A DNA stretch of 64,000 bases from the NCBI GenBank assembly GCA_016795505.1, contig JAEUHH010000016.1:1-64000 (forward strand). The letters are read 5' to 3'. Both the position numbers and the translations under genes were made by a program. The notes below the pieces were generated by a model. That model searched no databases. It was not told where the DNA came from and saw only the letters and a list, made by a program, of their open reading frames with translations. Source of the DNA: Verrucomicrobiales bacterium. Lineage in GTDB: Bacteria > Verrucomicrobiota > Verrucomicrobiia > Verrucomicrobiales > DEV007. Of this stretch, positions 31,121 to 49,722 are shown one piece after another (positions within the stretch are counted from its first letter, which is position 1; the number at the start of each line of letters is the position of its first letter).

Positions 31121-33691
31121 TTAGAACGAGGCCCGCGCGCCGATGTGGACGCGGCCATCCTCGCCGTCATCGAAGCCGGACTCGTCGATCTGCCAGCCAT
31201 AATCGAGGCGGACCGTGAGATTTTCCCCAGCCTGATAGCGAATGCCGAGACCCACGCTGCCCAGTGAGATGTGGCTGGGCTCGTTCGGCAGCAGATCGGC
31301 GCTCTTCAGGTAGGCGTAGTCGAGGAAGACCAAGCCAACCATGGAGTCGCGAACATTGTAGAAACCGGCCCACTGCCCGAAGGACACCGGAGGCGTGCGG
31401 AGTTCCAAGCTGGCCACCACGCCGTTGTCGCCGCGCATCACGCGCTGCTCGAAGCCGCGCACGGTGTCATAGCCACCGGCCCCGAGAGTCTCGCTGGCGA
31501 GGAGGTTCGCATTGGAAAGCTGGCCTTCGACCCGTCCCAGCAGGGTCCAACTGCCCGGCAAATCCAACGTGCGCTCCAGTCGGGACCGGGCATACACGTA
31601 TTCGGCGCTGGATTCGGCCCGCTGGGTCTCGAAGGTTTCGTCGTCGTTGCCGCTGGTCATGTTGCCCGGCGCCCAGACGATCTCGTTGTCGAGGCGGGTC
31701 ATCCCGTTGCGGTCGCGCTGGATGACGTTGTAACCGAGGCTGAACTGAATGATCTCGGTGGTCGTGTCGAACACTTCCAAGCGATTGAAGAACAGGTCGC
31801 TGTTACTCGATTTCACATCAAAGCCCAGTTCCAGTTCGTGGGTGAACGAGCTGACCGCCGGCAGCGGCACGGCGTAGCGGGCACCGATCTGGCGATTGAT
31901 GCCGCCGATATCGATTTCCTCACCATCCACGATGACACGGGCGTCCGAACTGACCGTCGCGCCGACCAACGTGATGTAGTGACGCCACGGCAGGTATGAT
32001 GTCCACACGCCGGTGTGCCCCTGCAACTCGGCATCGGTATCGAAGCCGGTCGAGTACTGGTAGCTCAGGATATCCTCGGGACCGAAGAAGAACGGGCCAC
32101 CCCAGTTCACCCCGGTGACCAGGCGATCCTGGCCGAGCAGATCGGTGCCAGAGTCCTCATAGCCAATGTAGAGATTCAAAGGATTCACATCCTCGGTGCG
32201 AAGGATGATGTCGGTGGTGCCATACTCCTGACCGGGGCTGTAAACGAGGTCCACCCGGCGGAACGGATTACGGTTCAGCCACGTGAGGTCCTCCATCAGC
32301 GTGCTCTCGCGAATCACATCGCCCCGTTGCAGGCTGATTTGATCCTGAAGGTAGCTGGTCGAGGTGTAGAGATTGTTTTCGACGATGACATCGCCGAGAC
32401 GGCCTTCGATCACGACCAGTTGCAGGGTCCCACTGGTGATCTCCTGCTCGGGCACAAGAACGTCCACCACCGGGATGTCGCTCTTGCGATAGGCAACGAT
32501 CGCGTCGCGCACCATTTGATTCAGAGACGCCAGAGACATCGGCTTGCCGAGGTAGCTCTCGAACACCGTCGCGACACGCGGCGGGAGCATGATGCCATCA
32601 TTGACGATACCCTGCACACCGCTGGCTCCGGACGGGGAAACATCCTGGGTGCGGGGAATGAGACGAATGCCACCAAGGCTGGACACGAGCGGCTGGGTCT
32701 CGTCGACGGAATCGCTGTTGGCGAGGTCTCCCTGAAGGATGCCCTGCGGCTTGGACACCGGCGTCACTTCAAAAGTCGGATCGCTCGCCGCCGTCTCCGG
32801 GATGAACGGATTGCGCCATGCCCACGGCGCCTTTTTGTCATCGACCTGGCTGAAGTCGGGATTCACCCCACGTTTGATCCATTTCAGGCCCTCGGACTCC
32901 GGCTCCTGCCCTTGGAAGACGATCTGCTGATCTTTCACGAACCGGGCCTTGGAATTGAACGCCTTGAGCGACTTGCCGGTGGGGGTTTCCGGCTGAACGG
33001 CCGGGCCGTTGTAGGCGTAGTAGACCGGCTCCTCCATCTGGGGTCGGTTGGCGGCCTCCAACGCCTTCTGGCGAGCCACTTCGGCTCCGAGGCGCTGCTG
33101 CTCGGCCCGCTCGGCGATTATCTGCGCTTGGGCTTCTTTGACCTGCTTGATCTTGGCCTGTTTCTCGCGATAGCGCTCCATCCAGGTCTTGTCAGAGTCG
33201 GTCCGCAAGTCGGGCATGGAGGGCAACGCAGCGAGGGGCTCCTCCACCACGGGGGCATTCTGGTCCTGCCAGACGCCGGGATTGTCATAAGACTTCAGCC
33301 GATATCCGCTCGGCGTCATGAAGTCCGGCTGCGGGGCGTCGGGATCGGCGGGAATCGGTCGCTTCTGCTTTTCCAGATCCGTGAGACGACGAGCCATCGC
33401 CTTGTCCTCGTCTTCTGGCTCAGGGCCTTTCTGACGAGGTTGCATCCGCTTCTCGGCCTCTTGCTGCTGGATGGCGGCGCGACGCTGGCGCATCCGCTCT
33501 TTGAAGGTCTTCTCCGAATCCTGCCTCAAGTCCGGGGGAGGCGGCAGACTGCCCAGTTCGAGGTCCCGCTTGTTCTGCGCCTCCGAAACCGTGGCTCCGA
33601 AGATGGCCATCGAGAGAATCGCGAACGCGCCGGAGACGCGGCGTCCCTTCGCCACGTCAGACCATTTTTTGAAAATCGCCGTTGTATTCAT
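31121..33691 (-). CDS. Two-partner secretion transporter TpsB (ShlB/FhaC family) with long N-terminal extension
   Basis: 856 aa; usual TpsB proteins are 550-600 aa. Outer-membrane pore for export of the two TpsA proteins encoded upstream. The signal peptide is at about 22-38 (AFAILSMAIFGATVSEAQ). An extra region, about 39-370, is charged and partly coiled coil, with a duplicated module: PDLRQDSEKTFKERM... then TPSGYRLKSYD, and about 107 residues later PDLRTDSDKTWMERY... then TPTGKSLKAFN. POTRA 1 is at about 373-440 (SYLGKPMSLASLNQMV... TLQLVVIEGRLGDV) and POTRA 2 at about 443-510. The beta barrel to the C terminus includes the VRGFEQRV motif of this family and ends in Phe. The ATG at 33691 was preferred over a TTG seven codons earlier. 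Confidence 0.93.
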   Translation of the reverse strand: MNTTAIFKKWSDVAKGRRVSGAFAILSMAIFGATVSEAQNKRDLELGSLPPPPDLRQDSEKTFKERMRQRRAAIQQQEAEKRMQPRQKGPEPEDEDKAMARRLTDLEKQKRPIPADPDAPQPDFMTPSGYRLKSYDNPGVWQDQNAPVVEEPLAALPSMPDLRTDSDKTWMERYREKQAKIKQVKEAQAQIIAERAEQQRLGAEVARQKALEAANRPQMEEPVYYAYNGPAVQPETPTGKSLKAFNSKARFVKDQQIVFQGQEPESEGLKWIKRGVNPDFSQVDDKKAPWAWRNPFIPETAASDPTFEVTPVSKPQGILQGDLANSDSVDETQPLVSSLGGIRLIPRTQDVSPSGASGVQGIVNDGIMLPPRVATVFESYLGKPMSLASLNQMVRDAIVAYRKSDIPVVDVLVPEQEITSGTLQLVVIEGRLGDVIVENNLYTSTSYLQDQISLQRGDVIRESTLMEDLTWLNRNPFRRVDLVYSPGQEYGTTDIILRTEDVNPLNLYIGYEDSGTDLLGQDRLVTGVNWGGPFFFGPEDILSYQYSTGFDTDAELQGHTGVWTSYLPWRHYITLVGATVSSDARVIVDGEEIDIGGINRQIGARYAVPLPAVSSFTHELELGFDVKSSNSDLFFNRLEVFDTTTEIIQFSLGYNVIQRDRNGMTRLDNEIVWAPGNMTSGNDDETFETQRAESSAEYVYARSRLERTLDLPGSWTLLGRVEGQLSNANLLASETLGAGGYDTVRGFEQRVMRGDNGVVASLELRTPPVSFGQWAGFYNVRDSMVGLVFLDYAYLKSADLLPNEPSHISLGSVGLGIRYQAGENLTVRLDYGWQIDESGFDDGEDGRVHIGARASF

Positions 33692-33963: not shown

Positions 33964-36900
33964 TCACAGGCCAGGCGTCCCGAACAGATTGTTGCTGCTG
34001 TAGTGGCCCGAGCCGCCGAAGGCCTGAAACTGCCAATAAATGCCGTAGAGACGGCCCAATTGGCGGTAGGCAGCGGCATTTTGCTCGCGCAGATCGGCTT
34101 CTTCCTCCTCATCGGTTTCATCGACCGGGAATCCAAAGATCTCGGCCAGAGACTCCACCGCCTCGGAGTCGTATTGCGCGCCGACGCCGGGCTCGCCATC
34201 GACATCGCCCAAGAGACGCGAGATCAGGCCGATTCCCTCAATGAAGTAGTCGCTACCTCCCAACAGCCACTGATCGTCGCGATCAAAGCTGTCATACTTG
34301 TCGGACCAGATGTAAGGCAGGAAGTCAAACGGCAGAGGAACAACTGGCGGCTCGGGGATGACCGGAACGGGAACACCGGTTCCGCCGCCGCCACCGGACG
34401 GAGTCGGCGGGAACAGGCCCACGGGCGCGATGGCATCATAATACATCGTGTAGAGGTTGGCGCCCGTGCCGCGGTATTCGGCCGTGCCATCACCCAAATC
34501 TCCCGCCGCCAAGGCGACGAGGTTCGGCAAGCCACCCGGAGCGGAAACCGTGGCGACGGAACCGGCAGAGAAATCGGCCGCCGTGCCGACCGAGGTCGTG
34601 ACCGCCGTGCGATTCCACCACAGATCGGGTTGCAGATAGATTTCGTCAAGATCGCCGGCATCGACGCCGCCATTGCGGGTCGGATCCCAGGTGCGTCCCA
34701 GCGTGGCATGGGTGCCGTCGGTGAAATTCGCCCCGGCCGTCCCACCAACACCTCGATAAACCGTCGTGGCGGAGTTAAACCGATTGTTGTCGGCGAGCGT
34801 CATCAGGTTGTTGGTGCGCGCCGGCAGGTAGAAGCGGAGTTCTTCCGAACCATTCAGAGCGCTGGTGAAGACCGAGTCCACTGCATCCAGTGTGCCGGTG
34901 CCGCCAAAGAACGGAATGTTACGGCTGACCCCGATAGTAGTGGTGCCGGAAATGGCCGTCAGAATCGAGGGCAAGAGGCGCGGGTCGTAGTGCCCAACCA
35001 GAGTGCGGTCGAAGAACGCATTCTCACCCACAGCCACCGAGATGTCGCCACTGCGTGAGCCGGTCCCACCGGTCGCGGGCTGGACCACCTGCAACCCGTC
35101 GGGAAGCCAGTCGCCATTGCCGATCATCACGTAGTTGTTGAGGTTCGGCGTGCCCAGCACTCCAGGGGCCGGGTCCGGGTCCTTCCAACCACGCGTCGTA
35201 GTCAGATCATTGCCAACACGGACATCGATGTCGCCCGCTTTCAGGCCAACCACACCAGGGCCACTATGGCCGATCTGGGTGAAGCCCAAAATTGTGGGAC
35301 TACGGAGAAGACCGGGAAGAATATTCTGGGGATTGCCTACAATAGCAACATTCTGATCGGCGCTGTTGCCACCCGTCATGTTCAGATCGTTCCCCACCTC
35401 AACCAGGATGTTGCCAGACTGGTTGGAAACGACCTGCTGGAAGGTAGCAATATTCTGGTAGGATGTGGACCAGTGTCCAATCTTGGCCAGACCATACAGG
35501 GATGCCGCAGGATTACCGACAGAATCGCGAGCAGCACCCTGGGTGCGTTGAGCGGCCGTAATATTCAGATCATTACCGACGGAAACCGTGATATCGCCTT
35601 TCATATCGTCCTCAATCTGGTCCCCACCATGCCCGATGACAGCAGCAGCCGCCACCACCTGAACCACATCGACACCACCGGGAGTATCAATCCATGCCTG
35701 TGAACCAGCCTCAAGAGTCAGATCATTACCAACAACCACATCAATATTACCCGCAAAGCCAGAGGGCCGATGACGCGAATTGCCCACATCGTCAGTGTAT
35801 CCGTGACCCACCTGAGCGTAACTACCCAATTCACCACGACCACCACGCACCACCATATCATTACCCACTTCGACGGAAATATCCGAGAGAGCTACCAATC
35901 CCTTTCGAACGCTGCCATCGCTCAGCACAACCACGTCGTTGTTATCATACACTCCACCATGTCCGATGCGAACGTAATTGGAACGGACCGGCGCACCAAA
36001 ACCCGCCAAACTCAAATTCGTGGTATCACTGGGATCAGCAACCGATGCATCCAGAACAATGTCATTTAGGGCGGTTATAGAAATGTTACCGAAAAGCACC
36101 CCTGCGCGATCCAAACTGAGGTTCGCCGCATCGAAACTATCGCCTGTACCAAACATGTGACCAATGCTGGTGAACCAATTCAGCCCACTGCCACTGGTCA
36201 TATTGATGTTGCCGGCGTTCACGGTGATATCACCCATCTTGTCCTTTGAGTTGTACTGGGCGTTGAGCGAGTTGTTTCTCAAAAGCCCTGTTCGCCGGGC
36301 ACCGTGACCAATGAGAACTTCGACGAAGCGGAGATCATTCAAATTATTCTGGGCAAGATCGAAATTGCGCTTGGCTTGATTTTGATTAATCGCCAATCCT
36401 ACCGGGGAATGCCTCATAATCAGATCGCCACCGGCCGAGACGGAGATGTTTGCCGTATTTCCGCTGATGTCGTAGGTATTCACCTGACTGCCGACCGTAA
36501 TTGTTGCGGTGTTACCCACCACCGTGGCGTCAGCGTTGATTGGCGCAAAATCTGCCGAAGTCGGTGTCACAATGAAATGCGGACCAAACAGGAACTGTTC
36601 ATCCCTAAAAAAGTCACCACCAGATTGGCCGTAACCCTGGGCTGTCTGATGTCCGATCTTGGCGCCACTGTCCCGATAACGACCACCCACCAGCATGACA
36701 TCCCCATCAAAATCAACCGTGATATCTCCCGTATAATAATTTGTCCGAGCCTCATAACCATGATGCCCGATCTGAGCTTGGGCGCGCTGAACGCGGGCTC
36801 CACTGAGATCACCAGTGAAGTCCGGAAGATCAGCATAACCCGGAACATTCTTCGCTGAAGCACCACGCATGACGAGACTTTTCGCCCCAGTCACCGTGAT

Positions 36901-39900
36901 GTCCCCAATGGCCACATTACCGGTTTCCATATCTGTCAACTCGGCTCCTCCATGACCGATTGCTGCGAAGTCGTAAGCGTCGTTCCCGGCGGTAACCTCA
37001 ACCCCGCCATTGACCGCCTTGACAGAAATATCACCAATCATGTTGGTAAAGGTGGGGCTGCGGTTGATCTCGCTACCACCTTCCGTTCCCGTGAGCAGCA
37101 ACTTCGTGTCGAGACTGGCGCTGAGTTCATTGTCTCCGTCGTTACCATCGTTGCCATCAGCACTGCCGTTTTGGATGCGGAGCCGCACGCGATCATCGCC
37201 ATTCTCAGCACCAATGGAGAATCCACGCCCACCATGGCCAATCATGGCGTAGCGGCTGTCTCGCACGAAACGCAGCCCGTCGTAGGCCAGACCATCGACA
37301 TCGTTGGATGTGTTGTAGGTACCTGTCGTGGTGTCGGGCGTGGAGAAAGCGACAATCTTGATGCCGGTGTTTCCGTAACTCTCAACATTGATATCACCCA
37401 CCAACGTCTTGTCCACGGCACCTGAGAAGCCGGGGATATGCATGGGGCCGGCCGGGTGGAAGCCGTCGCGTCCAGTCACCGCCACACCGGCCTGATTGCC
37501 GGCCGTCACAGAATCCACATCCCAAAAGTCCCCATCCCAACGATCCGCTCGGAAATCGGCGGTGTAGGCCCCTCGGGCATCGTCGACCCCATTCGCGTGG
37601 ACAAACAATTCGCCCCGACGGAGGTTCGGGTTGTCAAAATCGGTCGCATTGGCAAAGAATCGGATCTGCATGGACCGGTCCGAATGCGGATTCCAGTAAA
37701 CGTATCCGCCCATCTGGTGACCGATGGCCGCGTAGTTCCGGGTGTGAGCCCCCGCGAGCAACTCGATATCGCCACCGGCCTTCACGTTGATGTCGCCAAC
37801 CACGTTGCCAAACTGTCCGACGCCCAGGTGGCCAATCTGAACCGGCGACTCGGAGTTATTTCCGGTCTCGGGATTAGCCAAGTTGTTGGTGGAAGCGGTG
37901 TTTTGCCATGCCTCCATCCGGATGAGACCAGCCGTGCTGTTGGTGGTACCGGTCAGATTCACTTTCTGGTTGAGGGGATCGTAGTTGACCGTATTTCGAT
38001 CCACTCCGGTCAAGATGTTGATGTTGCCATAAATTGGTGCCAAGCGGGCGATGGATGTGGAAGTGCGGTCGGCGTTTGCCCCATTGGTCGTAAAGAAGCG
38101 AAATGCCTGGGAGTCCAGAATTCCACCGGCCCCAGTATCCCGAAGACTCCGATCAACCCCCCACTGGCTCGAATTTCCGCCATGCCCGATCTGGGCGTAA
38201 TTTTGATGCCGTCCACCACTCTTCATCAGCAAGCCGCCAGTCAAAGCCACATTGATATCGGCCCGGTTCGTGATGCTCTGCCCGGCTCCATTTTCTGGAA
38301 GCCGTCCGCCCAAACCCAGGGGATCGGCACTGGCAGCGTCGATCTGTTGATACCACCAATTGCCGAACACATTGGACGTATACTGGTTGGAGAAGGACAT
38401 GAAGGTCGGATTTCCACCAGTTGAAGTGTTCGATGCATCCAAAATACCGGAACTGTTGACCGCATAGACCCCGTCCGGAACCGTATCACCGTTCATGTCC
38501 CGCATGTATGCCGGCATCGTCGGCAATGGAGTGCCGTTCTGAATGGCCAGCGCCCGCGCTTCCATATAGGCGGTGTATTCGTCGTAATCGAAATAGGCGA
38601 CTGCGGGATCGTTGTCGGCCATGGCCGTGCGGTCGTTCAAGTCGAATGCCGTGTTCGTGTGCACCCCTGTGAATACATCGGTCGCCGAGCCACCCGCCCG
38701 CGACAGAACCGCACCGCTGTCCCGGAAGCCCAAGTGCACAAAATCGGTCTCGCCGGTATCCGCAGCGATCTGGGTCGTGGTCATGATGAGGGTGTTTCCA
38801 GCCACATTGGTGTTGCCATAGCGGGATCCCACTTCGAAGTGGCGATTGAGGGCGCCATCGCCAATCAGGATCGACCCGATCCCATTCCCGAACTGGCCAT
38901 TCTCCACATAATGTTCCCAAACCTGCTCGGGGTTCAAGGCGCCCGCATTGGCGTTGAATTGCCCCGTAAGCGGATTGACATAACCGGGGCTGAACAAACC
39001 GCCCGGCAACAAATCAGCCTCCGATCCCGTCCACCCCGCCAGCAGGTTGATTGATCCGCCTCCGGAAGTGCGGATCGTATTCTGAATCACGATGCTGCCG
39101 CTGGCGAACACGCCAAAATCGGCATTCGAATTGGTCCATTGGATGAAATCGTGCCGCTCGTTTTCGATGCCCGTGTTGGCGAAAGTGATATTGCCGCTCT
39201 CGGTCGCGATGATCACCGAGGTGCCGCTCTGAAGGGTGTCGTTGATGGTCTTGTTGGAGATGATGCCAGGTGCCGCGGGAAGGTTGTTGGCGGATCCCGC
39301 AACTCCGTTGGCCTCCGTATTGGCCACCAGCACGTTGCCGGGGTCGAACAACACCATACCGGCCCGACCCCCGACTGAACTGGCCTCCACCGTACCATTG
39401 ACTGTCAGCGTTTCCTTGCCGGAAACCTCAATCAAACCACCATTCCCCACCGAACCAAGCGCCCTTGCCCGAATATCGCCGTAAAAGGTGGTGTCCTTGT
39501 CGGCCCACACGATCGCGGTACCGCCGTGTCCAGCTGTGGCATCCGCGGAAATCGTGGCCCCGTCTTCCACAGTGGTATTCTGCGCATTGGGGATGGAGGC
39601 GTCCTTACCTTGAAAGCCACCGCCAACATTCACGGCCCCCCCCCGAGTGCGGCCGTCAGCACCGACATCGGCACCGTCACGAATGATGGTGTTCGGAGCG
39701 GTCAGAATGACCCGGCCACCGGCGCCATTGATGCCATCAGAGATCACCGCCCCCTTCACGGACAGTTCCTCGGTGCCTCGGACATTGATCATGCCTCCGT
39801 TGTTGAAACCACTGGAATTGATCACGGAAGTCGCCGCCGTGGAGATATCGGCTCCCCGGACGTCGATCCTGCCGCCATCCGCGGCGGCGCTCGTCGCGTC

Positions 39901-41100
39901 CAGAGTGCCTTCCAGCCCGACCTGCTGACCGGCCACCAAAATCGTGCCCGCCACGCCGCTCGAACCAGCCGCCTGAACCGTCGCGCCCGTAGCCACATTG
40001 ACCGAAGAACTGGTCGGGGAACCGATCGTGATCGACCCGCCGCGGCTACCGTTGGCGCTGACGAGAGCGCCTTCCGTGACGTTCACGATGTCACCCAGCA
40101 CGGTGATGGTACCACCGGGACGATTACCCACGCCATCGGCTTTCACCGTGCCACCGATCTCGGCCTCATCAGCGAGTCCGGCATCAATCATGATTGTTCC
40201 GCCCGAACCGTCGCGATTGTTGGCCTGAATCGTACCCGTATTGACGATCTTGCCACTGGCCGAGCCATCCGCCCCGGTGGCGCTCAGCACCACGCGGCCA
40301 TTGACTCGGCTGGCACCGGTAGCCCGGATAGTGCCGCTGTTGTTCACCGCCAGCGCATAAACATTGCCATGGGCCTTCAACTCGACCGCCGCTCCGGTGA
40401 TGGTTCCGGTATTGTTCACGCCGGTGTTGCCACCGACTCCACCACGAAGAATGGAGATTTTCGCGTCACCGCTGGAGTGAAGCAGAATCTCGCCGCCCGC
40501 ACCCAAGGCCACCGTGCCATTGACGGCACCGATGGAACCATTGTTCTCAACGAAATTACCCATCAAGATCACATCCCCGCCCGCCGAGGAAATGGTGCCA
40601 AAGTTGGTCACACCCGCCGCCGTACTGCCGACGAAGCGCATATCGCCGCCGGCCATGAAGGCATTGGAATCGATGTCGAGCGTCGACAGGACATTCATGC
40701 CACCGATGTCCACCATCCCGCCAGGACCGACGAGGATGCCATTCTGGTTTACCAGAATATGTCCGCCATTGGCTTTGAGGGTGCCGTAAATGGCGGAAGG
40801 ATTGCCCCCGACCACCTTGCTCAGGGCGATGGCACTGGCACTGGGCTGAATAAACTCGGTGATCTCACCTGCCCCGATGGAAAACGACTCCCAATTGATG
40901 ACGGCCCGGTTGCTTTCCTGAAGCACCTTCAGGTGCGCCAGATTCGTCATGTCGATCTGGGCAGCGCCGTGGGTCACCACACCGCCGGTGGGATTGGCCC
41001 AGCCGGTGACCGGAGTCAGCAACAGGCCCGGCGCCAGGATCGAAATCACCCCCGCCTGGAGGGCGGACGCGAGGCGCAGTCGTTTCAGTAGCATTTTCAT
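33964..41100 (-). CDS. Giant two-partner secretion exoprotein TpsA (copy 1)
   Basis: 2378 aa. The signal peptide covers residues 1-35 (MKMLLKRLRLASALQAG...). The TPS secretion domain (about 36-300) has NPTGGVVTHG, NRAVINWESFSIGAGE, GNPSAIYGTLKANGGHILVNQNGILVG and MVDIGGMNVLSTLDI. A beta-helix region with NTGTI-type rungs follows, up to the common exoprotein motif TTFYGDIRARALG...GLIEVSGKE at about 39.4-39.6 kb. The central region (about 34.98-38.23 kb) holds roughly 16 units of (F/Y)-A-x-I-G-H-x-x ... G-D-I-x-V-x-V-G-N-D-L. After a Gly/Pro linker, the C-terminal domain has PFDFLPYIWSDKYDSFDRD, an acidic run, and YGIYWQF...YSSNNLFGTP. No toxin domain is recognisable. It lies 81 bp downstream of the larger copy and shares its transport gene. 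Confidence 0.9.
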   Translation of the reverse strand: MKMLLKRLRLASALQAGVISILAPGLLLTPVTGWANPTGGVVTHGAAQIDMTNLAHLKVLQESNRAVINWESFSIGAGEITEFIQPSASAIALSKVVGGNPSAIYGTLKANGGHILVNQNGILVGPGGMVDIGGMNVLSTLDIDSNAFMAGGDMRFVGSTAAGVTNFGTISSAGGDVILMGNFVENNGSIGAVNGTVALGAGGEILLHSSGDAKISILRGGVGGNTGVNNTGTITGAAVELKAHGNVYALAVNNSGTIRATGASRVNGRVVLSATGADGSASGKIVNTGTIQANNRDGSGGTIMIDAGLADEAEIGGTVKADGVGNRPGGTITVLGDIVNVTEGALVSANGSRGGSITIGSPTSSSVNVATGATVQAAGSSGVAGTILVAGQQVGLEGTLDATSAAADGGRIDVRGADISTAATSVINSSGFNNGGMINVRGTEELSVKGAVISDGINGAGGRVILTAPNTIIRDGADVGADGRTRGGAVNVGGGFQGKDASIPNAQNTTVEDGATISADATAGHGGTAIVWADKDTTFYGDIRARALGSVGNGGLIEVSGKETLTVNGTVEASSVGGRAGMVLFDPGNVLVANTEANGVAGSANNLPAAPGIISNKTINDTLQSGTSVIIATESGNITFANTGIENERHDFIQWTNSNADFGVFASGSIVIQNTIRTSGGGSINLLAGWTGSEADLLPGGLFSPGYVNPLTGQFNANAGALNPEQVWEHYVENGQFGNGIGSILIGDGALNRHFEVGSRYGNTNVAGNTLIMTTTQIAADTGETDFVHLGFRDSGAVLSRAGGSATDVFTGVHTNTAFDLNDRTAMADNDPAVAYFDYDEYTAYMEARALAIQNGTPLPTMPAYMRDMNGDTVPDGVYAVNSSGILDASNTSTGGNPTFMSFSNQYTSNVFGNWWYQQIDAASADPLGLGGRLPENGAGQSITNRADINVALTGGLLMKSGGRHQNYAQIGHGGNSSQWGVDRSLRDTGAGGILDSQAFRFFTTNGANADRTSTSIARLAPIYGNINILTGVDRNTVNYDPLNQKVNLTGTTNSTAGLIRMEAWQNTASTNNLANPETGNNSESPVQIGHLGVGQFGNVVGDINVKAGGDIELLAGAHTRNYAAIGHQMGGYVYWNPHSDRSMQIRFFANATDFDNPNLRRGELFVHANGVDDARGAYTADFRADRWDGDFWDVDSVTAGNQAGVAVTGRDGFHPAGPMHIPGFSGAVDKTLVGDINVESYGNTGIKIVAFSTPDTTTGTYNTSNDVDGLAYDGLRFVRDSRYAMIGHGGRGFSIGAENGDDRVRLRIQNGSADGNDGNDGDNELSASLDTKLLLTGTEGGSEINRSPTFTNMIGDISVKAVNGGVEVTAGNDAYDFAAIGHGGAELTDMETGNVAIGDITVTGAKSLVMRGASAKNVPGYADLPDFTGDLSGARVQRAQAQIGHHGYEARTNYYTGDITVDFDGDVMLVGGRYRDSGAKIGHQTAQGYGQSGGDFFRDEQFLFGPHFIVTPTSADFAPINADATVVGNTATITVGSQVNTYDISGNTANISVSAGGDLIMRHSPVGLAINQNQAKRNFDLAQNNLNDLRFVEVLIGHGARRTGLLRNNSLNAQYNSKDKMGDITVNAGNINMTSGSGLNWFTSIGHMFGTGDSFDAANLSLDRAGVLFGNISITALNDIVLDASVADPSDTTNLSLAGFGAPVRSNYVRIGHGGVYDNNDVVVLSDGSVRKGLVALSDISVEVGNDMVVRGGRGELGSYAQVGHGYTDDVGNSRHRPSGFAGNIDVVVGNDLTLEAGSQAWIDTPGGVDVVQVVAAAAVIGHGGDQIEDDMKGDITVSVGNDLNITAAQRTQGAARDSVGNPAASLYGLAKIGHWSTSYQNIATFQQVVSNQSGNILVEVGNDLNMTGGNSADQNVAIVGNPQNILPGLLRSPTILGFTQIGHSGPGVVGLKAGDIDVRVGNDLTTTRGWKDPDPAPGVLGTPNLNNYVMIGNGDWLPDGLQVVQPATGGTGSRSGDISVAVGENAFFDRTLVGHYDPRLLPSILTAISGTTTIGVSRNIPFFGGTGTLDAVDSVFTSALNGSEELRFYLPARTNNLMTLADNNRFNSATTVYRGVGGTAGANFTDGTHATLGRTWDPTRNGGVDAGDLDEIYLQPDLWWNRTAVTTSVGTAADFSAGSVATVSAPGGLPNLVALAAGDLGDGTAEYRGTGANLYTMYYDAIAPVGLFPPTPSGGGGGTGVPVPVIPEPPVVPLPFDFLPYIWSDKYDSFDRDDQWLLGGSDYFIEGIGLISRLLGDVDGEPGVGAQYDSEAVESLAEIFGFPVDETDEEEEADLREQNAAAYRQLGRLYGIYWQFQAFGGSGHYSSNNLFGTPGL

Positions 41101-41181
41101 GGGAGTGGCGAAAAAAGGGAGCTCAGATTCGAGGATCGTTTCAGCTGTAATTTATTGTCGTCAGACGGGGCCGCGTGACCA

Positions 41182-44100
41182 TCAGCGGCGGCGGCTCACG
41201 GCCGGAACACCGAAGACCCGATAGGAGGAATACTCGTTGGTGCCGATGTTGTAGGTCCAGAATTGACCATACATGGAGCGGGTGAACTTGAGATAGCGGC
41301 CCGATTTGTCCTCCTCTTCCTCTTCCTCGGACTCAGTCTGTGCCGGCCCAAGGCCGAACATGCCGGGGGATTCTTCGAGGATCTCATCGCCCTCGACCCG
41401 GATCCCTTCGTCCCCTTCGTAGGCCTCATTCGAGTCAAGACCAAAGATGCTGAAGAGACCGGCCAGCAGATCACCCCCGAGCATCTCCTCATCGCGGTCG
41501 AAGGAGTCGTACTTGTCCGTGAAGATGAAGGGGAAGTAGTCAAACGGCGGGATCACGGGCGGCTCGACTGGAGGAACCGTCGGAGGCAGGAATCCACCGC
41601 CACCTCCACCGCCCGGACCAGGACCGGGGCCAGGCGGCACAACAGGCTCGGTGGTGCCGTAGTAGATCGTGTAGAGACCGAAACCACTTGGGGAGTAGGC
41701 CCCTTCGGGCACGAATTGGCCATCCGGTTCGCCGAAGGCACCTACCGTGAGTTCATGATCCGTGGCTTCCACCTCGTCCGCACGGGTTCCATCCGGAGTC
41801 GGGGTGCGGGTGTAGTCCGCATTGTTGAAGAAGGCCCCGTCGCGAATGTCGTTCTGGGCCGGAGTCGGCATGTAGAGACGCAGTTCGCCAAAGAAACCGG
41901 CGCCGGCGCTGGTCAGAACCGCATCGGGGTGGATGCTCATCTTCCCGGTTCCCGTGTCATAGGGATCGGTCCGGCTCGCAGCGATGTAGGTGTGGCCCAC
42001 TGTGGAACGGAAAGCACTGCTCCCGGAGTTGACCGGATCGATATGGCCAATCAAGATCATATCGCGATTGGTTCGGGTGTAAGCTTCATCGACATAGGGT
42101 CGGTTGGCCGGATCGGAAAGGGCGACATCGCGACCAACGCTGATGTCGATATCGCCATTGCGGACCGCGGAGCCGCTTCCGCTTCCGCGCTGGCGGTAAA
42201 GGTGGTCTCCGTGGCCGATCTTGGTGTAGTTATTGAAGACCTCATTGCCGTCACGGGTTGAGCGGAACACCTGAACCACTTCCGCGCTCGACCGGGCAAT
42301 GGTCCCTGAGGCTATGTCAGCTGCGATGTCGAGGGGAGCCCCGCCCTGAGCGGTGGAAATCCGGAAGGTGTCCCCCACCACATCCCGCACGAAATATGAA
42401 GTGGTCGTCACCAGACCGCCAACATCCTGAGTCACCCGGATCCGGTCACCCGTCACGAACGTATGTCCCGCCGCAGTAATTCTATCGGTCGCGCCACTAG
42501 CCGTGATATCGAGCAGCTTTTGCATGGACGCCGCCGTGATAGCGCTCGTAAAGGGGATCGGCGCGCCGCCCGCCGTAGTGGACAACTCAAAGGAGTTGCC
42601 ACTGACTGATACGACAAAATAAGTCGTGTTTGCCGCCAGCCCCGTTCCGCCAGTCAGTGCCGTGAAGCGAACCTTGTCGCCTACCTGGAAGCCCGTGGGG
42701 AAAGCCGCCGTCACCTGAGTGCCGACGGGAATAGCCGGTTGGCCGACCCCGGTCGGAACCGTTGGGAAAATACTGAACGCCGCCGTGTTCTCCAGCGTGT
42801 TTGAATAGCGCCACAAGGCGAACGTGGTAGTACCCGCAGTGTGCTGGCGGATGGCCCACAATCCCTGGCCACCCGTCCCCGTGTCGGTGTCAGTGCCACG
42901 GTTCATGAACAGATCACGACCGGCCACCACCTCGATATCACCCGAGAAATTACCGCTCTCTGTTGCAGCAGTGCCACCATTGAGTCCGCCATGACCGATC
43001 TGGGTGAAACCGTCCCGGCTGCCCGCTGCGCCCATCACGATGACATCACGCCCCGCCGCCACACGAATGTCCCCGCGATGATCACCATCGGTGAAGTTGC
43101 CACCGTTACCAATCTGAGCACTGTTCCCACGGTTGACCTGATCGTCATTGGTGGAGAGCGAAGTCGCATCCGCCGTGCCCCCGCCCAGGACCTTTACGTC
43201 TCCCGTGATCGAAACAACCTCAATGTCACCAAAGAAGCCGCCGGTTCCGGGCTGCAGATTCAAATTGCCGCCTTGAGGGTCTGAATCCCAACCACCGTGC
43301 CCAATCTGGGCGTAATTCGCCACCCCATGGGAGATGTGACTGGCATTCGCCAACTCTGGATTGTCCAATTCGCCCTGACTCGACTCGGAATCACGGATTG
43401 GGGATCCGCCTTCGACGATGACATCACCGTGGGCCACCACGGAGACATTGCCATTGTGCTCCGCTCCACGCGTGTTGGCGCCGCCGTTCCCGATCTGGGC
43501 GAACGAGAATCGGGCGCTCTTGCCGCCCTTGACCGTCACTCCGCCTTCGTTGGAGACGAGTGTGATGTCACCGCTCTGCGTGCCGCCATTGGCATAGCCA
43601 CCGTTACCCAGCATCGCGTAGCTGAAGGAAGACCCATCATTGAGGATCACGACCTGATCTCCGTCACCCATGTTGGCAGTGACGGTGCCAGGCTTGCCCG
43701 CCACATGATTATTCATGCCTCCGCCGTGAAGCGTCACGTCACCATCGACATTGACATAGAGGGTGCCGGAACTTCCTGTATCATTGAGCCGGAAGTTATC
43801 GCTGTTCAAATTGCCGGTCGAGTTGAAGCCATCCGAATCATAGCCACCCATCCCGATTTGGGCAAAGCTCTGGGCGTCCTCACCTGCGAGCAGATTGAGG
43901 CCTACTCCTCCGGCGGTCTTGCCACCATTAATGGTGATATTACCCTGATGATCTCCCCGTGAGGTCCACCCACCGTTGCCGATCATGGCGAAGTTGCGGC
44001 TGTTGAAGGAAAAGTTGAGCTGGCTTCTGGTGTCGGTCCCACTGAGACCACCAACGGTGCCGAGACGTTCTTCGAAAGGCGTTGCGTTACCCACACGGAT

Positions 44101-47100
44101 CACACGATCGATCGTGCCATCGCGGCCGTCATCGACGTCGATGTTGAGTGCTTGACTCAAACCCACTTCCAAGTCGATGTCAGTGGCGATCACCTCGACC
44201 CCGCCGCCGGCAGTAATCGAAATATTGCCACGATGCCCCATGGTGTCCCCCTTGAGGGCCAGACTCGAAGTCACCCCGCCATTGGTGTAATCCGAACTCC
44301 GTCCGCCATGACCGATCATGGCGTAGCTGTCCTGTGCCGACATCACCGCAGCCGGCATGTGCCAGCGTTCCCCGCCGACCGGGATTCCATTGACGGTCAT
44401 ATTTCCGCCCAGCAGATTGGTGGTGAAGTTGATTGCCGCACCACCAGCCGTTGTAGACAACTGGAAAGTATTGGCACCCGCGTTGGAATTGATGACGAAG
44501 TAATCGGTATTCACCGCCAAACCAGTGCCACCATTCAAGCTGGTGAAGCGAACGACCGACCCGTCGGCCGGCGGAGCCTGAGTAGCACGATCCCAGACAT
44601 TCGTCCCCTGCCAGATCTGGAAGGTATCCGTAGCCTCACTACCCGAGGTACCGGCGCGATCAATGATGGTGGGAATGCCGCTGAACTGGGAAACGACCGC
44701 TGAAAGCGGCACGATGTTACCCAGCACATCGCGGTAAACAACCGGCGTCGTCGAGTTGGCGGCAATCGGATCGCGGGTCACCACATCCCGAACCGTCGGT
44801 CCGATGGTGCTCTTCTGCGCTGCTTCTATGCGGACATCGCCACCAACATCAATCGTAATGTCAGACGGCCCGAAGGTTCCCAATCCCTCACCAAGCTTAC
44901 CCGATGAGTTGGAAGTCTGCCGCTGCAGGTTAGCCGTGAAGTTCAAGGGAGCACCGCCTGCGGTAGTGGAAACCTGGAAACTGTTCGCGGTGGGAGTCGC
45001 CACGACAAAATAGAGCGTGTTGTTCGCCATGCCGGTGCCCCCGGCGATATTGTAAAACGCCACCTGCTGTCCCACCGCGAAACCATGAGGATTGACGGTG
45101 AAGTAAGTGTCGGTCGCCTGATTTCCCGAGACTTCCAGCAAGGCCCCACCCTGAGTCTGCACCACCGAAGTCGGCCGATGCGCCGTATTGAAGCCGCCGT
45201 GACCAATCTGGGCAAAGTTGAAGAAGCCGTTCAACGCGTCGTCTTCATTAACGCCCAAGCGGGGAGTGCCTCGCTGGTCGGCGTTGACACCCAACGGGTT
45301 CGCCGGGCCAATGTTGTTGCCTTCGATCGATACGCCATCCCAGCCTCCCCTGGCAGCCGCCTTCAAGTCGCCACCGGCGGTGACGTTGATCTCACCCCAG
45401 TGGTCGCCAAATGACTCGTAGCCCCCGTGACCGACCATGGTGAAGCTGGTTTGAATATTCTTCTCGATGCCAAAGGCTTCCTGACCTGGCAGAATCTCAC
45501 CATCCACCTGCCCTGCGGCAAAATCGATGTCGCCGCCAGCCGTGATGTTGATGTCGCCATTGTGGCCTTGCTGATCTGCCGCTGAAGCGCCGCCGCCCAC
45601 CACGGTTGGGTCGAGAATGTCGGCTATCTGACGGTATCCGCCGTGACCAATCATGGAGAAAGCCAAGTTGCCGAAACCGAAGCCGCTGCGGAACTTGATG
45701 TCACCGCCCGCGTTGACAGTGATATCACCAGTGTGGGTTCCCTGGGCCTGATTGGGGCCCTTCAGGGTGCCTTGGCCACCCACGGTTGATGTACCCGTAT
45801 CAGCCAGACCGCCGTGACCGATCATGGCAAAGCTCTGGTTCCGGCCGCCGTAGAATTCGACATTGCCGGTCGCGGAGACTGAAATATCCCCGGTCATGCC
45901 ACCATTCGAAGCATACCCGCCGTGGCCGAGCTGGACAAAGGCGCGATCCCCCACCTGCCGGCGATCAGCACCGCGCTGATCCACCTGCGCGGCGATGCGG
46001 TCGAAAATGACACCGCCTGCACGGGCTTCCACATTGATGTCTCCATAATGATCGCCGGAAGTCAAATTGCCACCATGACCCAGCATCGCGTAGCCGTTGT
46101 CACCAGACGCCGTGAAAGCGACCTTGCCGGCCCCGATCACATTGATATTGCCATTGTGACCGTATGCGCGCCCCGTGGCGGGATTGATCGCGATTCCATC
46201 CCCGGGGTTGCTGGTCGCTGTGGCAGTGGTGGAAGCCACGAAAGTGCCGTCCGGCTGCAGAATCTGGAGTCCCGCCCGCGCAGGCAAGGCCATCAAATGA
46301 TCCGAGTCGACCCCACCATGCCCGACTTGGACATAGGAGAAACCACGCTCGTTGTCCCATGCGCCATCCGCGAAGTTCGTCTTGCTGCCGGCTCCCACCA
46401 AATCAGGAGCAGCCGTGGCTTTCACATCGCCCAAAGTCGTTGTGATATTGATGTCACCACTGTGCTCGCCGCGAATCCGAATGCCGCCATGTCCTATTTG
46501 GGCGAACGCTTGGTCATAGAGACCCGCTTCTACCTCAAGAGCGCCGGCGGTAATCGTGATGTTGCCCGACATATCGCCGATGATGTTATTCAAACCCAGC
46601 ACGGCTCCATCGCCGCGGGTGGCGGGCGTGTTCACGAAATATTGCTGACTCGCACTGGCGTTGGGCGCATCGTCCGCATAACCTCCATGCCCGATCTGGG
46701 CAAAAGTCTCCTGCCGCCCTGCTTGGACGATCACCGCACTGCCGCCGTAAACCGTGATGTTGCCACTATTGGCTCCATCACCAGCCAGCACCTGGCCACT
46801 ATCGCTGCCGAAATCGGTGCCGCCGCGATTGTCCATGTCATCGTCATCTTCCCGCATCCCACCGTGACCAATCATGGTGTAAACCCGGTTCACTGTCTTC
46901 ACACCGTCGGTCGTATTGCTCTGGGGATCCACATACACCGCCACCACCGTCTTGCCGCTGACATTGATGTCCCCGTCCACGATTTGGGATGCCGCATGGG
47001 CGCGAGCTGCAATCACCGCCGGGTCAGCCGCATTGACGACCGTGCCATTGGGAATCGCCAGCGCTCCGAAGAAACTCGTGTCGCGCAGGTCGGTCGTCCG

Positions 47101-49722
47101 GCGATACCCCACTTGGGAAAACTCACCACCAGAGTCACCACCCTTGATGAGCACAGAATCCGCGAACAGGTTCGTCTGTCCCCGGGCGCTGCCCACTTCC
47201 ACAGGCTCGAGATTCGCATCGTTGAACATGATCCGGCTGCCCGCCGCACCCCAGTTCCCAAATTGCCCCACGATCGGCGTTCCATCCGGAGCGATGAAGT
47301 CAGCAGCGCTCACGTAGCTGCTCAGCGCCTGCGGATTGCCCGGATTCGGCAAACCGGCCGGCAACGTACCGTCCCAACCGGCCACCAATGTGATGTTGCC
47401 TGTGCGACCCGCATCAGTCATCCCGTGATTCTTGATGTCGCCATTCACGAAAATATTGTTGTGGGCAAGGAATGTCAGCGAGTTCGGGCTGTCATAAAGG
47501 ACGTTGGCTCCCGCACCGATCGTGATATCGCCCACGCCGCCGACACCGCCGCCCGTATGGACGATGATGTTGTTCAAAGCCAAAAAGCTGACCAAAACCG
47601 CGTCGCTAATGGTGCCTGAACCCGCGCCCACCGTCACATCCACCGGGTCGATCAAAAACACCCCGTTCTGCCCGTTGGCAGCCAGCGTGCTAACCATGCC
47701 ACCCACTTCGAGATCTTCCTTCCCGGACACTTCCACAAAACCACCGTTGCCCGTCGCGCCGAAGGCCTGGGCGGAGATGTCGCCGCGGTAGAAGGTGCTG
47801 CCGTTCGACCACACCACGGCATTGCCGCCGTTGCCGCCTTCCATGGCGTCCACCTTCACGCGGGCACCATCCTGCACCACGGTGCTGGAGGAATTCCGGA
47901 TCGAGCGGTTACGCCCCTGGTAGCTGCCGCCGATATTCACCTCGCCACCGCCGTTCCGGCCCGAGGCATTGATGTCGGCCGCGCTGCCGATGATGACCTG
48001 ATCACCCGTCGTCGTGATCCGTCCGCCGAGGCCGTTCAGACCCGTCGCCGACAGATCGCCCGACATCGTGGTGGTTCCGGCCGAATCCAGCAAAATCGTT
48101 CCACCGCTCGCCCCGCTGGCGTTGACCCCGGCGTCTTCGCCCACATTCACGCCACCGCCGTTGCCTTGGATGATCACACGCCCGCCGGCACCATTCGCAC
48201 CGCGCGCATCAATGGCGCCGTCGATGTTTACCCGGTCGGCATTGATCTGGTTCATCCCGCCGACTCCCTGGCTGCTCACATCGATGCCACCCGTGGCGCC
48301 GACGCTCACCTCGTTGCCATTGATCAGCACCGAGCCGCCCGTGGCATTGGCACCGGTCGCGCTGACCGCGCCGTTCACATTCACCGCGTTGCCGATGAAA
48401 TTCACCCGGCCGCCCGCGTTGCCGCCGTTGGCCGACACCGTCGAACCCGCCGCCGTCGTCACCGTGCCGCCCTGCATCAGGACCGTGCCACCCGCCTGGG
48501 CGCCGTTCGCGGTCACCTGGCCCTGCACATTCACCACACTGGAGCCATTGCCCATCAGTTGGACCGTGCCGCCGTTGCCGACGCTGCCATTCGCCGAAAC
48601 CTTTGCGTTCGGGCCGACCGTGATGGCCGTGGTGCTCTCCGGCGAGCCGAGTTGCACAAAGCCGCCGCTGGCCCCGTTGGCGGAAACGGTCCCGCCCATC
48701 ACATTGACCACATCGCCGAGCACCGTCACCGTCCCGCCATTGCGGTTGCCGCGACCGTCGGCCGCCACGCGGCCATCGACCAGATTCACCGTGCCGCCGA
48801 CACCGCCGTCGATCAGGATCTCGCCGCCGGAGCCATCGCGGTTGTTCGCCTCGATCGTACCGGTGTTTTCAATCGTTCCGCCGGTCGTGCCATTGCCCGC
48901 CGCGCTCAGGATCACCCGGCCATTGCGACGGCTGGCGCCATTCGCCCGCACGAGGCCCGTGTTCTGGATCGCCAGGGCGTAGACGTTACCATGCGCCTTG
49001 AATTCCACCGACGCTCCCGTCACCGTGCCCGTGTTCTTGATGCCGGTCTGGCCGCCCGAACCGGGACCGACGACGGAAATCCGTGAGTCACCGATCGTAT
49101 CGACCACAAATTCGCCGCCCGCGCCAAAGGCCACCGTGCCATCCGGCGCGCCGACTGTGCCCGAGTTGTCGACCATGTTCGCCAGCAGAACCACGTCACC
49201 GCCACGCGAGGTGATGGTGCCCAGGTTCGTCACCGCCGCCGTCGAGCTGCCCTTGAAAGTCATTGATCCTCCGTCGAGGAAGTCCCCGTCGGAGATATCC
49301 AGCGTCGACAGCACGGCCAGACCGCCGATGTCCACCATCCCGCCGCTGCCGACCAGAATGCCGTTCTGGTTCACCAGGATCACCCCGCCATTGGCCTGCA
49401 GGGTGCCCAAAATCGTCGACGGATTCCCACTCACCACCCGGTTCAGCGCCACCGCGTCCTTGCCCGGCTGGATGAACTGCGTCAGTTCGCCCGCCCCGAT
49501 CGAGAAATCCTGCCAGTTGATGATCGCCTTGTTCGAGCTCTGCTGGATCTTCAGATGCCCCGGCGTCAGGTCGTCGATCACGATGCCGCCATGCACCACC
49601 GTCGCCCCCGTGGGATTTGACCGGGCCGCCTGGGGCAGCAGGATGAGTCCGGGCGTCAAGGCCACCAAAATCAGGGCCTGGAGCCGGTGCGCTCGCCGAA
49701 GCATCTTCGTCATCGCCTTCAT
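41182..49722 (-). CDS. Giant two-partner secretion exoprotein TpsA (copy 2)
   Basis: 2846 aa. The signal peptide is residues 1-35 (MKAMTKMLRRAHRLQALILV...). TPS domain: NPTGATVVHGG, NKAIINWQDFSIGAGELTQFIQP, GTLQANGGVILVNQNGILVG, MVDIGGLAVLSTLDI. A long region of short NG/GG rungs runs to the STFYRGDISAQAFG...FVEVSGKEDL motif (about 47.7-47.8 kb). Then come about 20 repeat units keyed by (F/Y)-(A/T)-x-(I/L/V)-G-H-G-G, 13 of them with exact GHGG, at about 42.03-46.9 kb. These are interrupted by four modules ending in x-F-x-(L/V/I)-S-T-T/A-x-G-G-A-x. The C-terminal domain is PFDYFPFIFTDKYDSFDRD, acidic, YGQFWTYN...YSSYRVFGVP. First gene of the tpsA2-tpsA1-tpsB unit; the 257 bp upstream should hold the promoter, but I could not fix a -35/-10 pair. 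Confidence 0.9.
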   Translation of the reverse strand: MKAMTKMLRRAHRLQALILVALTPGLILLPQAARSNPTGATVVHGGIVIDDLTPGHLKIQQSSNKAIINWQDFSIGAGELTQFIQPGKDAVALNRVVSGNPSTILGTLQANGGVILVNQNGILVGSGGMVDIGGLAVLSTLDISDGDFLDGGSMTFKGSSTAAVTNLGTITSRGGDVVLLANMVDNSGTVGAPDGTVAFGAGGEFVVDTIGDSRISVVGPGSGGQTGIKNTGTVTGASVEFKAHGNVYALAIQNTGLVRANGASRRNGRVILSAAGNGTTGGTIENTGTIEANNRDGSGGEILIDGGVGGTVNLVDGRVAADGRGNRNGGTVTVLGDVVNVMGGTVSANGASGGFVQLGSPESTTAITVGPNAKVSANGSVGNGGTVQLMGNGSSVVNVQGQVTANGAQAGGTVLMQGGTVTTAAGSTVSANGGNAGGRVNFIGNAVNVNGAVSATGANATGGSVLINGNEVSVGATGGIDVSSQGVGGMNQINADRVNIDGAIDARGANGAGGRVIIQGNGGGVNVGEDAGVNASGASGGTILLDSAGTTTMSGDLSATGLNGLGGRITTTGDQVIIGSAADINASGRNGGGEVNIGGSYQGRNRSIRNSSSTVVQDGARVKVDAMEGGNGGNAVVWSNGSTFYRGDISAQAFGATGNGGFVEVSGKEDLEVGGMVSTLAANGQNGVFLIDPVDVTVGAGSGTISDAVLVSFLALNNIIVHTGGGVGGVGDITIGAGANVLYDSPNSLTFLAHNNIFVNGDIKNHGMTDAGRTGNITLVAGWDGTLPAGLPNPGNPQALSSYVSAADFIAPDGTPIVGQFGNWGAAGSRIMFNDANLEPVEVGSARGQTNLFADSVLIKGGDSGGEFSQVGYRRTTDLRDTSFFGALAIPNGTVVNAADPAVIAARAHAASQIVDGDINVSGKTVVAVYVDPQSNTTDGVKTVNRVYTMIGHGGMREDDDDMDNRGGTDFGSDSGQVLAGDGANSGNITVYGGSAVIVQAGRQETFAQIGHGGYADDAPNASASQQYFVNTPATRGDGAVLGLNNIIGDMSGNITITAGALEVEAGLYDQAFAQIGHGGIRIRGEHSGDINITTTLGDVKATAAPDLVGAGSKTNFADGAWDNERGFSYVQVGHGGVDSDHLMALPARAGLQILQPDGTFVASTTATATSNPGDGIAINPATGRAYGHNGNINVIGAGKVAFTASGDNGYAMLGHGGNLTSGDHYGDINVEARAGGVIFDRIAAQVDQRGADRRQVGDRAFVQLGHGGYASNGGMTGDISVSATGNVEFYGGRNQSFAMIGHGGLADTGTSTVGGQGTLKGPNQAQGTHTGDITVNAGGDIKFRSGFGFGNLAFSMIGHGGYRQIADILDPTVVGGGASAADQQGHNGDINITAGGDIDFAAGQVDGEILPGQEAFGIEKNIQTSFTMVGHGGYESFGDHWGEINVTAGGDLKAAARGGWDGVSIEGNNIGPANPLGVNADQRGTPRLGVNEDDALNGFFNFAQIGHGGFNTAHRPTSVVQTQGGALLEVSGNQATDTYFTVNPHGFAVGQQVAFYNIAGGTGMANNTLYFVVATPTANSFQVSTTAGGAPLNFTANLQRQTSNSSGKLGEGLGTFGPSDITIDVGGDVRIEAAQKSTIGPTVRDVVTRDPIAANSTTPVVYRDVLGNIVPLSAVVSQFSGIPTIIDRAGTSGSEATDTFQIWQGTNVWDRATQAPPADGSVVRFTSLNGGTGLAVNTDYFVINSNAGANTFQLSTTAGGAAINFTTNLLGGNMTVNGIPVGGERWHMPAAVMSAQDSYAMIGHGGRSSDYTNGGVTSSLALKGDTMGHRGNISITAGGGVEVIATDIDLEVGLSQALNIDVDDGRDGTIDRVIRVGNATPFEERLGTVGGLSGTDTRSQLNFSFNSRNFAMIGNGGWTSRGDHQGNITINGGKTAGGVGLNLLAGEDAQSFAQIGMGGYDSDGFNSTGNLNSDNFRLNDTGSSGTLYVNVDGDVTLHGGGMNNHVAGKPGTVTANMGDGDQVVILNDGSSFSYAMLGNGGYANGGTQSGDITLVSNEGGVTVKGGKSARFSFAQIGNGGANTRGAEHNGNVSVVAHGDVIVEGGSPIRDSESSQGELDNPELANASHISHGVANYAQIGHGGWDSDPQGGNLNLQPGTGGFFGDIEVVSITGDVKVLGGGTADATSLSTNDDQVNRGNSAQIGNGGNFTDGDHRGDIRVAAGRDVIVMGAAGSRDGFTQIGHGGLNGGTAATESGNFSGDIEVVAGRDLFMNRGTDTDTGTGGQGLWAIRQHTAGTTTFALWRYSNTLENTAAFSIFPTVPTGVGQPAIPVGTQVTAAFPTGFQVGDKVRFTALTGGTGLAANTTYFVVSVSGNSFELSTTAGGAPIPFTSAITAASMQKLLDITASGATDRITAAGHTFVTGDRIRVTQDVGGLVTTTSYFVRDVVGDTFRISTAQGGAPLDIAADIASGTIARSSAEVVQVFRSTRDGNEVFNNYTKIGHGDHLYRQRGSGSGSAVRNGDIDISVGRDVALSDPANRPYVDEAYTRTNRDMILIGHIDPVNSGSSAFRSTVGHTYIAASRTDPYDTGTGKMSIHPDAVLTSAGAGFFGELRLYMPTPAQNDIRDGAFFNNADYTRTPTPDGTRADEVEATDHELTVGAFGEPDGQFVPEGAYSPSGFGLYTIYYGTTEPVVPPGPGPGPGGGGGGGFLPPTVPPVEPPVIPPFDYFPFIFTDKYDSFDRDEEMLGGDLLAGLFSIFGLDSNEAYEGDEGIRVEGDEILEESPGMFGLGPAQTESEEEEEEDKSGRYLKFTRSMYGQFWTYNIGTNEYSSYRVFGVPAVSRRR

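What the first reader, a model, noticed from the sequence alone, without database searches (positions are those of the whole stretch)
32690..33580. TpsB with ~340-residue N-terminal extension containing a duplicated module
Ahead of the POTRA domains lie two copies, about 107 residues apart, of PDLR-x-DS-(E/D)-KT-x-x-ER followed by a charged helix, then TP(S/T)G-x-x-LK-(S/A)-(Y/F). First copy at about 33.54 kb, second at about 33.22 kb, with the TP(S/T)G parts near 33.31 and 32.98 kb. Ordinary TpsB proteins have only a short plug helix there. With two substrates and a duplicated module, one docking arm per TpsA is an attractive idea, but that is inference.
Basis: partly seen in the sequence, partly recalled or inferred. 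Interest (0 to 1): 0.7.

Follow-up and report, generated by a model that had tools for sequence, protein, structure and literature searches.

The report
Repeat-module arms paired with surface proteins
A bacterial secretion channel carries a repeated arm that in related species also exists as a separate protein and usually has about as many copies as there are giant surface proteins encoded beside it, which suggests a docking device for them.

Summary
TpsB at window 31124-33691 (-) has a signal peptide, about 290 residues with two copies (107 residues apart) of a PDLR / charged helix / TP(S/T)GxxLK module, then POTRA and barrel. No Pfam family covers the extension. The module was found in 32 of 74 genomes of one Verrucomicrobiales family.

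The module is not merely part of TpsB. In 10 of those 32 genomes it is a separate gene ending before any barrel; in two, the barrel is missing between the module and a conserved neighbour gene. It goes with an acidic C-terminal tail on a subset of TpsA proteins: all 29 genomes with the tail have the module. At 12 of 34 module contigs that I judged closed, module number equals linked tpsA number in 11 (2:2 nine times, 1:1 twice; 5:6 once). Two outlying genera are discordant, and the independent changes are few.

Best reading: periplasmic docking arms for TpsA C-terminal tails, roughly one per TpsA. Binding is inferred, not shown. A two-tpsA operon without modules or tails shows that two substrates alone do not require the arms.

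The parts
31124..33691 (-). tpsB, 856 aa: signal peptide about 1-38 (by eye), extension about 39-330, POTRA_2 372-430, ShlB barrel 491-768
33246..33553 (-). module 1 (type 1): P motif LPPPPDLR, charged helix (predicted 63-83), T motif TPSGYRLKSY
   Evidence: module HMM hit, 55.3 bits; tree; model (low confidence)
32901..33232 (-). module 2 (type 2): P motif LPSMPDLR, long charged helix (predicted 170-213, pLDDT about 70-80), T motif ETPTGKSLKAF and a possible hairpin
   Evidence: module HMM hit, 97.0 bits; tree; model
33967..41100 (-). tpsA1, 2378 aa, TPS domain 60-286; next to tpsB
33967..34380 (-). C-terminal tail of TpsA1 (about 130 aa)
   Evidence: 37% identity to the TpsA2 tail over 138 positions; tail profile 2.8e-34
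41185..49722 (-). tpsA2, 2846 aa, TPS domain 58-285
41185..41592 (-). C-terminal tail of TpsA2: Pro/Gly-rich linker, acidic helix, C-terminal beta hairpin
   Evidence: tail profile 4.1e-35; model, hairpin block pLDDT 89, rest low

Best explanation
Each module is a periplasmic docking element for the C-terminal tail of one kind of co-encoded TpsA. TpsA is exported N-terminus first through a TpsB; its Gly/Pro-rich linker would span the pore and its acidic helix-plus-hairpin tail would stay in the periplasm, held by a module: by the arm of the same TpsB (as in the window) or by a stand-alone module protein. Extra tpsA genes select for extra modules. Shown: the module's presence with the tail, number agreement at most closed loci, existence and conservation of stand-alone modules. 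Inferred: periplasmic location (from signal peptides and topology), physical binding, retention at the cell surface, and the pairing of module 1 with the adjacent TpsA and module 2 with the distal one.
For: Tail in 29 of 74 family genomes, all 29 among the 32 with the module; none of the 42 module-less genomes has the tail, although 15 of them have TPS-domain proteins. Number agreement at 11 of 12 closed loci (counts entered by hand). In genus g2, single-module genomes keep only type-2 module and only a D-clade TpsA; G021 has four complete type-2 modules and four linked D-clade TpsAs, after joining two contigs by a 55-base overlap. Ten barrel-less module genes; two loci (G028, G059) lack the barrel beside a neighbour gene that follows the barrel in G067, G034, G064 and G069. 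dN/dS of stand-alone modules 0.07-0.17 in four of five pairs, the fifth saturated. Distances, controlled for the barrel, n=10: module 1 with adjacent tail 0.49, module 2 with distal tail 0.39, crossed 0.17 and 0.09; contrast 0.61, permutation p 0.0045. Tails net charge about -13, modules about +2.
Against: No binding evidence. G015 has two tails and one partial module; G018 two degenerate tails and half a module, with no tpsA in the 38 kb fetched around its TpsB; G013 has a third tpsA fragment downstream; G059, G067 and G021 have further tailed tpsA genes not linked to a module; G021 is 5:6. Tail not detected in G066, G069, G077 (last two: contigs cut). Few independent events. Without the barrel control, module 2 correlates equally with both tails (0.47 and 0.47, n=12), and TPS-domain distances show no matched pairing (partial 0.56 and 0.57 for the crossed pairs); 4% of column bootstraps give no contrast. 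The tail profile was built from tails at module loci. Tail and module profiles show no similarity. Both structure models are of low confidence.
Confidence: 0.5

Rival explanations
1. Pre-secretion adaptor: the arm or stand-alone protein binds TpsA in the periplasm before export (chaperone or delivery to TpsB), releasing it afterwards; no lasting tether.
For: Fusion just ahead of the POTRA domains, which are known to receive substrate (PMC5422565, PMC9355242 abstract listing); a free periplasmic form fits; TPS-domain distances also follow module distances.
Against: The feature that separates module-linked from other TpsAs is a C-terminal tail, which would leave the cell last.
Confidence: 0.22
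2. Lineage-restricted spacer or envelope-binding extension with no TpsA-specific role; number agreement reflects common descent of a 2:2 state.
For: Nine of twelve closed loci are 2:2 in related genomes; extension is mostly low-confidence in the model; P motif is proline-rich.
Against: Stand-alone modules persist without the barrel under purifying selection; type-specific loss and expansion with tpsA; exact association with the tail.
Confidence: 0.17
3. The module protein is itself exported and forms part of the surface fibre with the TpsA tails.
For: Stand-alone forms carry signal peptides; tails are C-terminal.
Against: No TPS domain or other outer-membrane export signal seen in the modules; the fused form is fixed to POTRA in the periplasm.
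Confidence: 0.06
4. Generic rule: a TpsB serving two TpsAs needs two docking arms.
For: The window layout alone.
Against: G061:C19 has two tandem tpsA and a TpsB of a 600-aa frame without module; G018:C34 has a tpsA on each side of a short TpsB.
Confidence: 0.05

Closest known systems
TpsB transporters (FhaC/ShlB type, type Vb secretion)
   Same: POTRA_2 and ShlB/Omp85 barrel, linked tpsA genes with TPS domain
   Different: Long N-terminal arm with a duplicated module in place of a short N-terminal segment; the module also exists without the barrel. PMC4104836 (passages seen) and PMC5422565 (passages seen) showed me no such extension.
HMW1/HxuA C-terminal anchor of TpsA in its TpsB
   Same: A C-terminal TpsA segment is thought to stay in the periplasm and lock the protein at the surface (PMC5422565, passages seen)
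   Different: That anchor uses a disulfide loop in the pore; the 28 tails examined hold one cysteine in all, and a separate docking module is present here.
CdrA periplasmic C-terminal tail cut by LapG
   Same: TpsA-type adhesin held by a periplasmic C-terminal tail (PMC5422565, passage seen)
   Different: No docking repeat protein described in that passage; LapG relation not tested here.

Membership tests
TpsB (FhaC/ShlB) | ShlB/Omp85 barrel | tested here: met
   ShlB 75 bits against cut-off 22.7
TpsB (FhaC/ShlB) | ShlB-type POTRA ahead of the barrel | tested here: met
   POTRA_2 40.5 bits, residues 372-430
TpsB (FhaC/ShlB) | linked TpsA with TPS secretion domain | tested here: met
   both tpsA genes, 83 and 99.6 bits
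TpsB (FhaC/ShlB) | short N-terminal plug helix | tested here: inconclusive
   a long arm lies there; the model has helices at 63-83 and 170-213 but low confidence; plug helix recalled from the FhaC literature
HMW1/HxuA-type C-terminal anchor | cysteine pair making a disulfide loop | tested here: not met
   one cysteine in 28 tails
HMW1/HxuA-type C-terminal anchor | C-terminus kept in the periplasm | not testable with these tools
   needs protease protection or fractionation
CdrA/LapG retention | tail cleaved by LapG | not tested
   no LapG search was made

The most novel reading that the evidence does not exclude
A third partner of two-partner secretion: a repeat protein, free or fused to TpsB, whose module types and copy number set which and how many TpsA exoproteins of a locus are held, each module type reading one tail type.
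Probability: 0.35. Interest if true: 0.75.

Novelty: new variant of a known kind. Interest (0 to 1): 0.6.

Why it matters
How one TpsB handles several TpsAs, and how TpsAs without a disulfide anchor stay on the cell, are open. Here nature offers loci with one, two and about five modules, with and without the barrel, so the role of a TpsA tail receptor can be tested directly. It also points to an unnamed family pair (module and tail) absent from Pfam and NCBIfam as searched.

Tried and rejected
Homology of tail and module: none by hhalign. Known domains in module proteins or tails: NCBIfam none of five, Pfam only matches under the curated cut-offs. Two-substrate rule: rejected by the control loci (eight regions chosen by eye). 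Structure of the arm: low-confidence model only, so no fold search was made; the tail model likewise. Operon signals: promoter- and terminator-like sites no more than in shuffles. A divergent module beside unlinked tailed tpsA genes: a motif scan of 12 contigs found none apart from a half-module protein on G021:C4. That scan's regular expressions missed many real T motifs, so motif order was read from the sequences. In the mirror test G000 and G013 were left out beforehand, because their two TpsAs group together in the TPS tree.

Full report
WHAT IS THERE. The TpsB of the finding is an 856-residue protein (window 31124-33691, -). Residues 1-38 look like a signal peptide (by eye). Residues 39-330 hold two modules: P motif (PPPDLR / SMPDLR), charged helix, spacer, T motif (TPSGYRLKSY / TPTGKSLKAF). 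POTRA and ShlB barrel follow. Upstream on the same strand stand two tpsA genes, 33967-41100 and 41185-49722, each with a TPS domain, and each ending in a Pro/Gly-rich linker and a related tail of about 130 residues (37% identity over 138 positions). The own genome has four TpsBs but one place that matches the module profile.

DISTRIBUTION. The extension profile matches 32 of 74 genomes of the family and 33 of 386 drawn from the order. The one outside the family, G289, has a locus at zero tree distance from that of G013; I take it for the same locus, perhaps misbinned. A scan of 84,980 species' genomes found 22 loci, all titled as Verrucomicrobia or groups within it; but only one peptide pattern was used there, the G003 and window loci are not among the 22, and more divergent forms would be missed.

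FUSED AND FREE. Of the 32 genomes, 21 have the module fused to a barrel, 10 have a module ORF that ends before any barrel (G021, G028, G058, G059, G062, G063, G066, G077, G079, G081), and one (G070) is cut by a contig end. In 8 of the 10 a tpsA lies on the same contig; in G077 and G081 it does not. G066 and G081 end close to the module, so only the absence of fusion is sure there. All 10 genomes have at least one ShlB match elsewhere, which could serve as the transporter (inference). In G028 and G059 a short-chain dehydrogenase-like gene follows the module within 200 bases; the same gene follows the barrel in G067, G034, G064 and, cut by the contig end, G069. A relaxed search for barrel remains in the ten contigs gave two weak matches inside tpsA ORFs of G021 (E 0.0003 and 0.001) and one at E 0.58 in G059. 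So the barrel was lost there and the arm kept (or, less likely, the reverse). dN/dS of the free single modules is 0.17, 0.12, 0.14 and 0.07 in four pairs; a fifth pair has saturated dS and was dropped. Two of the four also have dS above 1, so the values are rough.

THE TAIL. A profile of TpsA tails from module loci matches 29 of 74 genomes. All 29 are among the 32 module genomes; the three without a detected tail are G066 (a shortened tail by eye), G069 and G077 (contigs cut). The 2x2 table is 29, 3, 0, 42; among the 47 genomes with any TPS-domain match it is 29, 3, 0, 15; within genus g2 it is 21, 3, 0, 9. Fisher's p values (1.6e-17, 1.1e-9, 5.7e-6) ignore kinship. The tail profile was trained on tails at module loci, which helps this agreement, but the search was free to find tails anywhere. 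Hits in G009, G015, G018 and G023 are weaker (E 2e-12 to 1e-4).

NUMBERS. One search shows 34 contigs with modules. I judged 12 loci closed (no TPS hit beyond the array; G083 and G066 closed on the tpsA side only; G034 and G021 joined over contig ends by overlaps of 25 and 55 bases). Counts, entered by hand: 2:2 in G000, G028, G034, G061, G067, G079, G080, G082, G083; 1:1 in G062 and G066; 5:6 in G021. G079 has T-P-T-P, counted as two. In genus g2, TpsAs fall into a P clade (next to the module gene) and a D clade (distal) by TPS domain. Single-module genomes have only type-2 modules and D-clade TpsAs (by TPS domain in G062 and G066, clade support 0.69; by tail in G058, G062 and G063). G021 has four complete type-2 modules and four linked D-clade TpsAs, plus two near-identical P-clade ones; the fourth D gene is split over the joined contigs. 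G079 has one complete type-2 module and one D. These are about two independent changes, so the agreement is suggestive.

RESULTS AGAINST. G015: two tails on other contigs, one partial module. G018: half a module, two degenerate tails elsewhere, no tpsA in the 38 kb fetched around its TpsB. G013: two tailed tpsA upstream and a tpsA fragment downstream at the contig end. G003: of its linked tpsA genes one, of 4584 aa, lacks a recognisable tail. G059, G067 and G021 have tailed tpsA genes at other places without a module nearby. Most other loci are cut by contig ends and say nothing on number.

CO-DIVERGENCE. With barrel distances held constant (10 genomes), module 1 follows the adjacent tail (0.49) more than the distal (0.17), module 2 the distal (0.39; 0.37 in the first run) more than the adjacent (0.09). 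The contrast 0.61 has permutation p 0.0045, jackknife range 0.48-0.87, and 4% of column bootstraps at or below zero. Without the control (12 genomes) module 2 follows both tails alike (0.47, 0.47). TPS-domain distances do not show matched pairing. I expected the pairing from the loss and expansion pattern before the test, but the sample is small.

CONTROL LOCI. Eight regions around other TpsBs or TpsAs, chosen by eye, show no module and no tail. G061:C19 has two tandem tpsA before a TpsB of a 600-residue frame; G018:C34 has a tpsA on each side of its TpsB. Several TpsAs there end in another shared C-terminal sequence.

STRUCTURE. AlphaFold2 gives the TpsB a mean pLDDT of 52.7, pTM 0.37; the arm is mostly under 50, with helices 63-83 and 170-213 better. 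The TpsA2 tail: mean 61.9, pTM 0.23, a helix at 89-105 and a hairpin at 110-125. Tails are acidic (mean net charge -14.0 and -11.9), modules slightly basic (+1.4 and +2.1), and the tails hold one cysteine in 28.

READING. The arm most likely docks TpsA tails in the periplasm. It works like a TpsA anchor receptor; it is not a member of the HMW1/HxuA disulfide anchors. The TpsB itself is an ordinary member of its family apart from the arm. Literature: passages of PMC5422565 and PMC4104836 were read; all other papers were seen as search listings only. Seven searches of the open-access library listed no paper that I could recognise as describing such modules; subscription papers are not covered.

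Noticed in passing
G021:C4:32561-32947 (-), in L119: A 129-residue secreted-type protein with one PPLPDLRTP motif and a coiled-coil-like end, without T motif or TPS hit in the 20 kb fetched.
   Followed up: partly
L194, L197, L199, L200 (G061, G083, G028, G067): TpsAs served by short TpsBs share another C-terminal sequence (LL..QL.D....EL..AL), so tail type seems to go with TpsB type.
   Followed up: no
G000:C56, 70001-105000 (L049, L050): The TpsB closest to the window's (48% identity) has no TpsA-like hit in the 35 kb searched; such orphans might serve barrel-less loci.
   Followed up: no
window 33967-49722: Both TpsAs carry many scattered copies of an IGHGG-type motif (read).
   Followed up: no
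L035, L041, L043, L044: In G003, G025, G009 and G023 a tpsA lies downstream of the long TpsB; these form a TPS-domain group of their own. The G003 copy is 4584 aa.
   Followed up: no
G289:C365 (L104): Locus at zero tree distance from G013's, although binned to another family; possible contamination.
   Followed up: no
window 59074-61866 and 56305-57831 (-): PSCyt1/PSCyt2/PSD1 and DUF1501 proteins near each other, and a YhgA-like transposase at 25710-26723.
   Followed up: no
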